In this document: positions 77 to 1,866 of the stretch, piece after piece
Layout of the letters: each line of letters starts with the position of its first letter
Numbering within the stretch: position 1 is the first letter of the stretch
Translations under genes and position numbers: made by a program
Source of the DNA: Laspinema palackyanum D2a
GTDB lineage: Bacteria; Cyanobacteriota; Cyanobacteriia; Cyanobacteriales; Laspinemataceae
Reading direction: 5' to 3'
Length of the DNA: 64,000 nucleotides
Assembly: GCA_025370845.1 (NCBI GenBank)
Contig: JAMXFF010000011.1
Span: 1-64,000, forward strand
Notes under the pieces: model-generated
What the model was told of the DNA's origin: nothing
Seen by the model: the letters and a program-made list of their open reading frames with translations, nothing else
Database searches by the model: none

Positions 77-190
77 GCTTACATACTTGCTCACCGGTAG
101 AGCATTACTCTCATAAAGTAAACGCAGCAGGTTCGATTCCTGCGTATGAAACAACGGCTTTCTGGACTTGTACGAGGTGTTTAAATTTTT
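77..190 (+). ncRNA. tRNA-like RNA 1 (anticodon loop with CAT)
   Basis: A cloverleaf can be drawn at 80-151. The acceptor arm is 80-86 with 144-150, six of seven pairs with a mismatch at the second pair. The D arm is GCTC/GAGC (89-92, 100-103). The anticodon stem is TTACT/AGTAA (105-109, 117-121) with loop CTCATAA, so the anticodon is CAT. A 5-nt variable loop follows, then T arm GCAGG-TTCGATT-CCTGC (127-143). No CCA is encoded. The same leader and 3' flank recur around a second tRNA-like RNA at 243-365, so the unit is duplicated in tandem. It could be a Met or Ile tRNA at the end of a tRNA array, or a tRNA mimic (Y-RNA-like) serving the Ro60-like gene just downstream. The cloverleaf is seen; the role is inferred. 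Confidence 0.6.
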
Positions 191-242
191 CGGGTTTCAT
201 CCGGCTTGTAGTACCCAAGCACTTCGCGCCCTAACTGAAAAA

Positions 243-365
243 GCTTACATACTTGCTATTGGTAAAGCGCTCGGTTCAAAATCGAGTACCCGAAAGGGTT
301 TGTGGGTTCGACTCCCATGTAGAAACGAAAGGCTTTTTAAACTTGCGCGAAGTGTTCTTTTTTTT
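243..365 (+). ncRNA. tRNA-like RNA 2 (Leu-CAA-like, long variable arm, degenerate acceptor)
   Basis: This second copy begins with the same 15 bases as copy 1 (GCTTACATACTTGCT). It has a 3-bp D stem GCT/AGC (255-257, 266-268), an anticodon stem CTCGG/TCGAG (270-274, 282-286) with loop TTCAAAA (anticodon CAA), a class II variable arm ACCC-GAAA-GGGT (288-299) and a T arm with loop TTCGACT (302-318). In the standard register the acceptor pairs at only four of seven positions. An alternative register pairs TTACAT (245-250) with ATGTAG (317-322). This weak acceptor argues against an ordinary aminoacylated tRNA. The 3' flank GGCTTT...ACTTG...GA.GTGTT...TTTTT matches copy 1. The RNA ends about 70 bases before the start codon of the Ro60-like gene. 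Confidence 0.55.
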
Positions 366-432
366 AGAGTCAATCCGTAAATCATTTAAAGCTAATTTTA
401 AAAACAATAATTTAGACAGAAGGAGGACGTTT

Positions 433-1866
433 ATGAATGCAGCAGAACGGGATTTAAGACTGGAAATGTTGAATAGTTTGTTAACTACCCCCCACCGCAA
501 ACTGGAAGATGTGGCAGAACTACATCAACTGATGGTGGAATTGGACCCGATTTTTTACGGTCATTTGGGGGTTTGGTATAGCAAAAATGGGGATGTCCGA
601 GATCATCAAGAAGTCTTTGTTGGACATTTACTCACCAGTCCCTTAACCGCACATCGGGAAGCGGGTTTCGTGATGCTGCAAGGGTTGCCTCCGTATCAAG
701 TCGCACGGGTTGTGGATTTTATGAAGCAGCATCGGGGGAAAGTCCCGCGTTCCTCACGCACGGCAGTGACGCAATATCTGCGCGATCGCGAAAAAAATGC
801 CACCTTCTTCGATCGCGCCGCACTTCGCAACCGCAGTGCCATGAAACATCTGTATGCCAGCTTGCATATCAAACCGAGCGATCGCGCTGATGCAGTGCTA
901 TTTAAAAACCAACCCCCCCAGGATTCCCTCGCCTATATCCTGAAACAACTGGCAAAATCCTCCAATCCGGCAGAACAAGCGGCACTGATTGTGGAACATA
1001 ATATTCCCTATCCGATCGCCGTCGGTGCCCTGCGGCAGTTAACCCCAACCGTCTTAGTCGCACTGATTAACTCCATGTCGGCGCAGGAGGTGATCAACAA
1101 CATGAAATCCTTGCAAGGGCGAGGTGCGATGGATCATCCCGATGTCAAAGCGTTGATTGAGGGGAAATTACAAAAAGCGCAAACCAGCGATCGCGTCTCT
1201 GCCTACAAAGCGCGAGTCGCTGCCGATGCTGCCAACTTGGATGCTGCTACCACGGCGCAGTTAGAACAAATTACCAATGAACAAGTCAAAAAGCGCGGGA
1301 AAATCAGCAAACCCACAGGATTGCTGGTGGACAAATCCGGTTCAATGGACTCGGCGATCGCCGTGGGTAAGCGTCTAGCTGCCATGATTTCCGGGATTTC
1401 CGAAGCGGCACTCTATGTCTATGCCTTCGATACCATGCCTTACCCAGTCACCGCTCAGGGTGCTGAATTAAGCGACTGGGAACGTGCTTTCGATGGGATT
1501 AACGCCGGGGGAGGAACCAGTATCGGTTGTGCCTTAGAAGTCATGCGTCGGAAAAAGCAGGTAGTGGACCAAATCATCCTCGTCACCGATGAAGGTGAGA
1601 ACGTTCATCCCCATTTCGCCGATGTTTATCAAACCTACTCTCGCGAATTTGCGGTGATGCCAAATGTGCTGATCGTCCGTGTGGGAAGTTCCTGCAATTG
1701 GGTAGAAACCCAACTCAAGCAGAAGCAAGTGCCGGTGGAAACCTTCACCTTTGCTGGAGATTACTATTCCTTGCCGAACCTCGTCCCCTTGCTGTCTCGT
1801 CCCTCGCGACTGGATTTGCTAATGGAGATTATGGACACTCCCCTTCCGGTGCGTCAAAATAAATAA
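433..1866 (+). CDS. Ro60/TROVE-like protein with C-terminal vWA domain
   Basis: The product is 477 aa. The first ~280 residues are alpha-helical and resemble a divergent TROVE (HEAT-repeat) module: a [15 protein letters not shown] segment and an [20 protein letters not shown]...[12 protein letters not shown] segment recall the conserved helices of Ro60. The C-terminal part is a von Willebrand A domain with an intact MIDAS: D300-x-S302-x-S304 (VDKSGSM), T362 (GGGTS) and D386 (LVTDEGE). Ro60/Rsr proteins are ring-shaped RNA-binding proteins that hold Y RNAs and misfolded RNAs and tether nucleases. ATG 433 is chosen because AGAAGGAGGA stands just before it; the frame is open further upstream but that part overlaps the tRNA-like RNA. 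vWA is certain, TROVE probable. An alternative is a vWA protein of a MoxR-type system, but no MoxR ATPase is nearby. Confidence 0.7.

What the first reader, a model, noticed from the sequence alone, without database searches (positions are those of the whole stretch)
77..1866. Tandem tRNA-like RNAs directly upstream of a Ro60/TROVE-like vWA protein
Seen: two copies of a ~115-bp unit (77-190 and 243-365), each folding into a tRNA cloverleaf (anticodon loops with CAT and CAA) but with defective or shifted acceptor stems and shared non-tRNA 3' flanks ending in T runs. A strong ribosome binding site and a vWA protein with an intact MIDAS follow within 70 bp. Known: bacterial Ro60 homologues (Rsr) are encoded beside Y RNAs, some of which (YrlA) carry a tRNA-like module. 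Inference: these are Y-RNA-type tRNA mimics dedicated to this divergent Ro60-like protein, possibly with the HNH protein as nuclease. The copy at the left edge (bases 1-25 resemble the 3' flank) hints that the array continues outside the window.
Basis: partly seen in the sequence, partly recalled or inferred. Interest (0 to 1): 0.82.

Follow-up and report, generated by a model that had tools for sequence, protein, structure and literature searches.

The report
Ro60 protein with ribosome-mimicking RNA array
A patchily distributed cyanobacterial gene makes a distant Ro60 protein and sits beside a tandem set of small RNAs that share a Ro60-type binding stem but display imitations of transfer RNA and, in related copies, of key parts of the ribosome, possibly as decoys or adaptors during translation stress.

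Summary
Largely confirmed, and larger than reported. The 433-1866 protein is a divergent Ro60: the 13 best PDB hits of its AlphaFold model are all Ro60/TROVE, though Pfam TROVE is not hit. The "tRNA-like units" are Y-RNA-type: a two-part stem with a CCYRA/ACUU internal loop and UUACAUA, enclosing a module. One complete unit lies at 218-356; another (77-180) lost its 5' arm to an IS whose end is window 1-76. Contig C40, ending in the other IS end with a matching 9-bp duplication, holds three more units and a 27-tRNA array. Units occur in 38 of 43 gene loci (114 on the gene strand, 0 on the other). In 386 cyanobacterial genomes unit and gene coincide (25 of 28 gene genomes, 2 of 358 others); putative phages carry both. 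Modules vary: whole tRNA, permuted tRNA (YrlA-like), anticodon-type hairpins, and 23S mimics: sarcin-ricin loop plus GTPase-associated centre, or a 1916-1941-like piece. Best mechanism (inferred): a stress-linked Ro60 RNP presenting translation-RNA mimics as decoys for enzymes that damage them; rival: adaptors recruiting effectors, as YrlA does.

The parts
1..76 (.). Terminal part of an insertion sequence (ends TTGTCACCCTCTCAG); the opposite end closes contig C40 with an ORF that reads like a transposase (my reading, not searched)
   Evidence: C104:1-77 identical, 87% copies on C89 and C39; opposite end and ORF on C40
77..85 (+). Target-site duplication GCTTACATA, overlapping the UUACAUA element of the interrupted unit
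   Evidence: same 9 bases precede the element on C40
77..180 (+). IS-truncated Y-type unit: tRNA-mimic module with CAU loop plus 3' stem arm (155-180); its 5' arm lies on C40
   Evidence: Rfam tRNA 49.1 bits; model R1 81.9 bits with broken stem
207..214 (+). TGTAGTAC, one mismatch from the reported TrcR site / -10 box TGTAGTAT, upstream of the complete unit
   Evidence: exact TGTAGTAT at the same place in L009, L011, L012, L013; site reported in PMC10272220
218..356 (+). Complete Y-type unit: lower stem, CCUAA / ACUU internal loop, upper stem, UUACAUA, tRNA-mimic module with CAA loop and long variable arm; T run follows to 365
   Evidence: 99.7 bits, E 1.5e-21 with model R1; fold z -4.2
433..1866 (+). 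Divergent Ro60 (TROVE-type HEAT ring plus vWA) protein, 477 aa
   Evidence: AF2 model pLDDT 85, pTM 0.75; Foldseek ranks 1-13 all Ro60/TROVE; profile hits 9l5y/9kop
1927..2187 (+). Small HNH protein (86 aa); neighbour only, beside the gene in 5 of 44 loci
   Evidence: Pfam HNH, NCBIfam HlpB below cut-off

Best explanation
Shown by computation: this is a Ro60-type ribonucleoprotein locus. One divergent Ro60 protein is encoded with a set of Y-RNA-type small RNAs that share one stem design but carry different modules resembling the translation machinery: whole tRNA, permuted tRNA, anticodon-type hairpin, sarcin-ricin loop plus GTPase-associated centre, and a 23S 1916-1941-like piece. Inferred: under translation stress the locus is switched on with the neighbouring reserve tRNA array; each RNA folds, is bound at the stem by the Ro60 ring and thereby stabilised; the exposed modules act as decoys (sponges) for enzymes or toxins that attack tRNA and the ribosomal factor-binding centre, sparing the real RNAs, while the reserve tRNAs replace damaged ones. 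In many relatives one unit sits in the mRNA leader and a hairpin covers part of the ribosome-binding site, so free Ro60 could set its own level (inferred).
For: Ro60 fold. 114 units in 38 of 43 gene loci, 0 on the opposite strand, 1 in shuffled sequence. Stem and cloverleaf arms covary: 98.1% of cells paired, 22 of 32 pairs with two-sided changes, 0 of 500 shuffles, slid versions 37-54%. Gene and unit coincide in 25 genomes; 3 have the gene only, 2 the unit only, 356 neither; Fisher p 8e-34, not corrected for kinship. SRL 11-mer AGTACGAGAGG in 17 of 54 distinct loci, once each, on the array strand (0.27 expected). 14 distinct units align to the 23S GTPase-associated centre. 23S 1916-1941-like module in 6 units, three by blast at E 6e-4 to 8e-3, three by motif. 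Gene plus units in 7 of 9 putative phage loci. The Anabaena tRNA array and rtcB are TrcR-repressed and released under translation inhibitors (PMC10272220); exact TrcR site upstream of 9 of 127 units, 0.46% expected.
Against: No attacker has been tied to any module. In the window's clade anticodon-loop positions are among the most variable (1.3-1.8 bits), but D-loop and variable-region positions are as variable, so this may be lack of constraint rather than diversification. The 1916-1941-like module departs from 23S right after AAAUUC. YrlA's tRNA-like domain is reported to bind PNPase (PMC8394870 passage), favouring an adaptor role. The recurrent leader module (10 units) and three others match nothing I know. 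The gene is complete but no unit was found in L020, L046 and L047. SRL-type units are absent from 37 of 54 distinct loci, though many loci are short. No expression or binding data were available.
Confidence: 0.42

Rival explanations
1. Adaptor (RYPER-like) model: modules recruit effectors such as PNPase, tRNA-modifying enzymes, L11/L12 or translation GTPases to the Ro60 ring for RNA quality control or decay.
For: YrlA's tRNA-like domain reportedly binds PNPase and is modified by DusA and TruB (PMC8394870 passages). About 22 of 150 units are permuted tRNAs of YrlA layout (sorted by my rules and eye), and those in L030, L035, L039 give sub-threshold YrlA hits. An L7/L12-domain gene family lies in 7 loci, fitting the GTPase-centre mimic.
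Against: Does not by itself explain several different modules per locus, whole tRNAs with anticodon arms, or an SRL copy.
Confidence: 0.33
2. Cis-regulatory model: units are mainly leader elements by which Ro60 controls its own mRNA and transcript processing.
For: In many relatives a unit sits just upstream of the gene, and in the four leaders folded the minimum-energy structure pairs GAGGA of the ribosome-binding site.
Against: Many units lie further upstream, several on other contigs or plasmids; in the window a T run separates the last unit from the gene.
Confidence: 0.12
3. Ordinary or decayed reserve tRNA genes next to an unrelated gene.
For: A 27-tRNA array lies on C40; arrays of 8 or more tRNAs lie within 5 kb upstream in 13 of 43 gene loci (my count); arrays occur without the gene on plasmids.
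Against: The enclosing stem covaries, non-tRNA modules share it, and units track the gene. The acceptor 5' strand is UUACAUA in most units whatever the anticodon.
Confidence: 0.04

Closest known systems
Ro60 / Rsr (TROVE plus vWA) proteins
   Same: HEAT-ring plus vWA fold; the nearest solved structures include human Ro60 (9nen), the Ro autoantigen 1yvp (Xenopus, recalled), Deinococcus Rsr (2nvo) and Thermus phage phiLo Ro60 (9l5y)
YrlA bacterial Y RNAs (Rfam RF02553)
   Same: End-pairing stem plus tRNA-like module; the permuted class has T, acceptor and D arms and no anticodon arm, as described for YrlA
   Different: YrlA hits stay far below the gathering score (24-33 vs 69 bits; hits in 3 of 6 loci scanned); here also tandem arrays, whole tRNA modules with anticodon arms, and 23S rRNA modules
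Long tRNA arrays (L-arrays / trn operon)
   Same: Canonical tRNA array upstream of units and gene in 13 of 43 loci; plasmid arrays carry a unit in 3 of 5 examined
   Different: The link to a Ro60 gene and Y-type RNAs was not found in print in the searches listed under Tried and rejected
Salmonella rsr-yrlBA-rtcBA RNA repair operon
   Same: Ro60 homologue, Y RNAs, tRNA-damage context (PMC7790460 passages)
   Different: No rtcB or rtcA turned up among the ten neighbour families I checked with Pfam (other neighbour ORFs unchecked); KptA-type and ThiF-like families in some loci instead

Membership tests
Ro60/TROVE protein | Ro60-type HEAT ring plus vWA fold | tested here: met
   Foldseek ranks 1-13 all Ro60/TROVE, E 3e-13 to 2e-8, TM 0.61-0.70 normalised by query
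Ro60/TROVE protein | Pfam TROVE sequence signature | tested here: not met
   not hit by the window protein at E<=1; not in the capped list for 27 homologues; profile-PDB search finds TROVE chains 9l5y, 9kop at E about 1e-3. Filed by fold, not by Pfam
Ro60/TROVE protein | intact vWA MIDAS | tested here: met
   D300, S302, S304, T362, D386 invariant in 27 homologues; motif recalled
Ro60/TROVE protein | binds Y RNA | not testable with these tools
   needs pull-down
Y RNA | 5' and 3' ends pair in a stem with an internal loop/bulge | tested here: met
   covariation of both stem parts, 99.6% and 96.1% of cells paired; the loop motifs themselves were demanded by my scanner
Y RNA | encoded beside a Ro60 gene | tested here: met
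   38 of 43 loci; 25 of 28 gene genomes hold a unit
YrlA (RF02553) | Rfam gathering score | tested here: not met
   best 32.8 bits vs 69, in permuted-tRNA units; window 1-2200 gave none at E<=1
functional tRNA | free acceptor end with identity elements and CCA tail | tested here: inconclusive
   acceptor 5' strand mostly UUACAUA and embedded in the Y stem; processing not testable
23S SRL/GTPase-centre mimic | SRL core and 23S 1036-1114-like fold in one RNA | tested here: met
   12 of 12 aligned units have AGTACGAGAGG and the GTPase-centre core; none in the window itself, one at C40:112453-112659 of the same genome
TrcR regulon | TGTAGTAT overlapping -10 | tested here: inconclusive
   9 of 127 units exact, p 1e-8 but related sequences; the window copy has one mismatch; no exact site in the 165 bases printed before the C40 array

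The most novel reading that the evidence does not exclude
A new kind of RNA-based protection: a Ro60 ring loaded from a tandem array with interchangeable baits, each imitating a vulnerable site of the translation machinery (anticodon loops, tRNA body, sarcin-ricin loop, GTPase-associated centre, 23S helix 69-71 region), used by cyanobacteria and by large phages against RNA-damaging attackers, and paired with an inducible reserve tRNA set.
Probability: 0.35. Interest if true: 0.95.

Novelty: new variant of a known kind. Interest (0 to 1): 0.86.

Why it matters
It would show that Y RNAs are a modular platform: one Ro60-type stem on which different translation-RNA mimics are mounted, including a composite of the two 23S elements that touch translational GTPases. 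That makes the long-open question of what bacterial Ro60/Y RNAs do directly testable, links Ro60 to inducible long tRNA arrays, and offers natural small-RNA mimics of ribosomal functional centres.

Tried and rejected
Rejected: (1) bases 1-25 as a further unit: it is an IS end. (2) HNH as partner nuclease: 5 of 44 loci. (3) Units as plain tRNA genes: stem covariation and non-tRNA modules. (4) 16S mimics: no 16S match at E<0.01 in blastn of modules against E. coli and Nostoc rRNA; stronger hits to the Nostoc operon at 2981-3195 fall in the spacer, which I take to be its tRNA genes. (5) Known defence systems: PADLOC gives nothing for the Ro60 protein; the ThiF-like neighbour resembles E1-E2 parts (9 proteins). 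(6) Rfam for one 1916-1941-like module and one leader module: nothing credible. (7) Solved relatives of three neighbour families: none credible.

Literature: searches over the held open library gave no paper linking Ro60 with tRNA arrays or with SRL/GTPase-centre mimics; I saw listings only, except passages of PMC7824862, PMC11208441, PMC7790460, PMC4030889, PMC8394870 and PMC4726728 and abstract, one passage and sections 8, 9, 13 of PMC10272220. Four papers I looked for are not held (a bacterial Ro60 review, the YrlA 2014 paper, an RNA-damage survey of 2016, the 2021 L-array paper; titles recalled), so absence in print is not established.

Weak points of my counts: the unit scanner was tuned on cyanobacterial units and demands CCYRA, NTACAHA, ACTT and stem pairing, so conservation of those motifs and its pairing counts are biased; one search repeats the test with the 5' motif only (155 gene-strand and 10 opposite-strand motifs; perfect 6-bp lower stem in 111 of 155 and 0 of 10; shuffled arms mean 50, max 60). 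The shuffle is one mononucleotide shuffle per locus. It missed SRL-type units in L009, L011, L013 and L052. One search's automatic classes and anticodons contained errors (e.g. L017, L043, L028+1893) and counted two contigs twice (L105 = L028, L100 = L049); one search recounts 150 units in 54 distinct loci, and I moved five units by eye. One search's base total includes protein records read by mistake (0 hits); I use. Model R1 also matches ordinary tRNAs: in plasmid arrays without a unit the best such match is 42.6 bits (L126), whereas the seven phage loci score 51-83. One search used stricter filters that can lose weak units. The genome's own rRNA operons are not in the assembly, so mimics were compared with E. 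coli and Nostoc rRNA.

Full report
WHAT IS THERE. The window is the start of contig C22 of a 7.41 Mb cyanobacterial genome; close relatives are Oscillatoria sp. HE19RPO and Laspinema (92-95% protein identity). Bases 1-76 are an insertion-sequence end; the opposite end, with an ORF that reads like a transposase, closes contig C40, and both flanks carry the 9 bases GCTTACATA. Adjacency of C40 and C22 is therefore inferred, not assembled. C40 carries a 27-tRNA array (about 110403-113451), a GNAT gene, a 66-residue protein, and three complete units at 115093-115543. A fourth unit is split by the IS (5' arm on C40, the rest at window 77-180), and a fifth, complete, lies at window 218-356. The gene starts at 433, with AGGAGG at 421-426.

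THE UNIT. Each unit is a two-part stem: a lower helix, an internal loop with 5' CCYRA and 3' ACUU, an upper helix, then UUACAUA and a module. I first saw this by eye just upstream of the gene in many relatives and then scanned for it, so conservation of these motifs in the scanned set is partly by selection. On 26 tRNA-type units, not including the window's, RNAalifold recovers the 11-bp lower and 7-bp upper helices and the D, anticodon and T arms. With that structure 98.1% of cells pair, 22 of 32 pairs show two-sided changes, 0 of 500 shuffles reach either, and slid versions pair 37-54%. The structure derives from these sequences, so the slid control leans in its favour. A covariance model from them finds the window's units at 99.7 and 81.9 bits; the second has a broken stem where the IS replaces the 5' arm. 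Recalled, not tested: vertebrate Y RNAs carry a similar CCGA/CUUG core at the Ro60 site.

THE PROTEIN. Single-sequence Pfam gives only weak vWA matches. A profile of 27 homologues finds TROVE chains in the PDB at E about 1e-3; 6 of 27 members hit vWA_Ro60. The AlphaFold model (pLDDT 85, pTM 0.75) has Ro60/TROVE structures at ranks 1-13. It is a Ro60 by fold, remote in sequence (12-16% identity in those hits).

DISTRIBUTION. The gene is in 28 of 386 cyanobacterial genomes and 7 of 294 genomes of the phylum of the Phycisphaerales locus L045, that genome included. Of the 386, 27 carry a unit by the model; 25 carry both, 3 gene only, 2 unit only, 356 neither (p 8e-34, not corrected for kinship). 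A sequence pattern for the 5' arm gave 22 genomes, 19 of them with the gene; its reversed control hit 1 (overlap counted by hand). Around the gene, 38 of 43 loci have at least one unit (114 units, none on the opposite strand, 1 in shuffled sequence); the five without are two cut inside the gene (L038, L051) plus L020, L046 and L047. Viruses: one of 50,697 phage records (595 kb) and eight IMG/VR contigs of 37-470 kb encode the protein; 7 of these 9 loci have model matches of 51 bits or more (L112's on the opposite strand; L110 and L113 none).

THE MODULES. Recount over 54 distinct loci, 150 units (with five units re-sorted by eye): whole tRNA mimic 65; permuted tRNA (T arm, closed acceptor, D arm, no anticodon arm) 22; SRL plus GTPase-centre 13; 23S 1916-1941-like 6; conserved hairpin CTTC-CTGTTAA-GAAG, an Asn-GUU-like anticodon loop, 9; unexplained leader module 10; minimal 22, eight of them with an AACU-CUGNNNN-AGUU hairpin; other 3. 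Permuted units match the layout described for YrlA (PMC8394870 passages); those in L030, L035 and L039 give YrlA hits below threshold. Among whole-tRNA modules the anticodon triplets are diverse, with CAT the commonest; the calls are automatic and some are doubtful.

RIBOSOME MIMICS. In the same genome, C40:112453-112659 (inside the tRNA array) is a unit holding the sarcin-ricin core and a 23S GTPase-associated-centre copy; it is the only LSU rRNA match in that assembly. The 11-base SRL core occurs once each in 17 of 54 distinct loci, on the array strand (0.27 expected). Blast to E. coli 23S around 1036-1114 gives E 1e-7 to 3e-10 and to Nostoc 23S down to 3e-14, at 68-79% identity. SRL and GTPase centre lie about 1.5 kb apart in 23S and in the opposite order, so this is a composite, not a plain rDNA remnant. 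Twelve aligned copies have 84% mean column identity. A true plasmid-borne 23S (L130) served as an unplanned control: its SRL lacks the unit context. The 1916-1941-like modules match 25-26 bases at 85-88% by blast in three units and by motif in three more; that this is the helix 69-71 region is recalled numbering.

CONTEXT. Arrays of 8 or more tRNAs lie within 5 kb upstream in 13 of 43 loci (my count) but also exist on Nostocales plasmids that lack the gene; 3 of 5 such arrays examined contain one unit. In Anabaena the array and rtcB are repressed by TrcR, and translation inhibitors relieve that (PMC10272220). Its reported site TGTAGTAT is within 60 bases upstream of 9 of 127 units against 0.46% of random stretches: the last unit of L009, L011, L012, L013 and the SRL units of L021, L022, L023, L025, L042. 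These are related sequences, so p 1e-8 is optimistic; the window's copy has one mismatch, and no exact site shows in the bases printed before the C40 array. Neighbour families in subsets, by ORF clustering with one or two members tested in Pfam: ThiF-like (15 loci), an unknown protein (19), KptA (6), L7/L12-domain (7); the 66-residue protein in 24 of 54 distinct loci.

MECHANISM. Shown: Ro60 fold, shared stem, interchangeable modules, linkage. Inferred: binding, induction, function. The modules imitate sites that RNA-cutting or RNA-modifying enzymes and translation factors recognise. I favour decoy because several mimics are stacked per locus, YrlA-type RNAs alone would not need anticodon arms or an SRL, and putative phages carry them. 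Against it: no attacker is identified, and in the window's clade anticodon-loop positions are highly variable (1.3-1.8 bits) while the stems hardly vary, but so are D-loop and variable-region positions (up to 1.85 bits; 22 modules aligned), which may be mere lack of constraint. The adaptor model is the strongest rival.

VERDICT. I file the protein as Ro60 by fold, the RNAs as Y-RNA-type but not YrlA family members by Rfam, and the rRNA-mimic modules as not found in print in the searches I could run.

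Noticed in passing
L052:2454-2660 (C40:112453-112659 of the window's genome): Unit with sarcin-ricin core and 23S GTPase-associated-centre copy inside the canonical tRNA array.
   Followed up: yes
L052, ending at 5028, and 23 other distinct loci: Highly conserved 66-residue protein MVHIRFEGRS...RRPSGDLIVRPEAVYG near the units; no Pfam or NCBIfam match and no credible PDB match.
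   Followed up: partly
L023:9012-10513 and relatives: Unknown protein plus ThiF (E1-like) gene near the Ro60 gene in 19 and 15 loci by clustering; the ThiF-like protein resembles E1-E2 parts in PADLOC.
   Followed up: partly
L023:4182-4571 and 6 other loci: L7/L12-domain protein family in the same island, notable beside a GTPase-centre mimic.
   Followed up: no
L026:4793-4941 and 9 other distinct units: Recurrent leader module, often with hairpin GCCTGAGACCGATAGCAGGC; no rRNA match at E<0.01 and no credible Rfam match for the one scanned.
   Followed up: partly
L123, L124, L126 about 200 bases before the array: HNH endonuclease gene annotated upstream of plasmid tRNA arrays in three Nostocales records.
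   Followed up: no
G388, G170, G077, G128; G281, G331: Ro60 genes with stops (G388, G170, G077) or only partly matched (G128), and two genomes with units but no gene match: perhaps decay or loss of the system.
   Followed up: no
L129:2990-3050 (Planktothrix plasmid): Only the 3' arm of an SRL-type unit seems to remain, a likely relic.
   Followed up: no
L130 (Allocoleopsis plasmid pMIC7113.02): Plasmid carries 23S rRNA sequence including GTPase centre and SRL, perhaps a plasmid rRNA operon.
   Followed up: no
window 16107-16494: tmRNA gene, tag ANNIVPFARKAATVAA.
   Followed up: no
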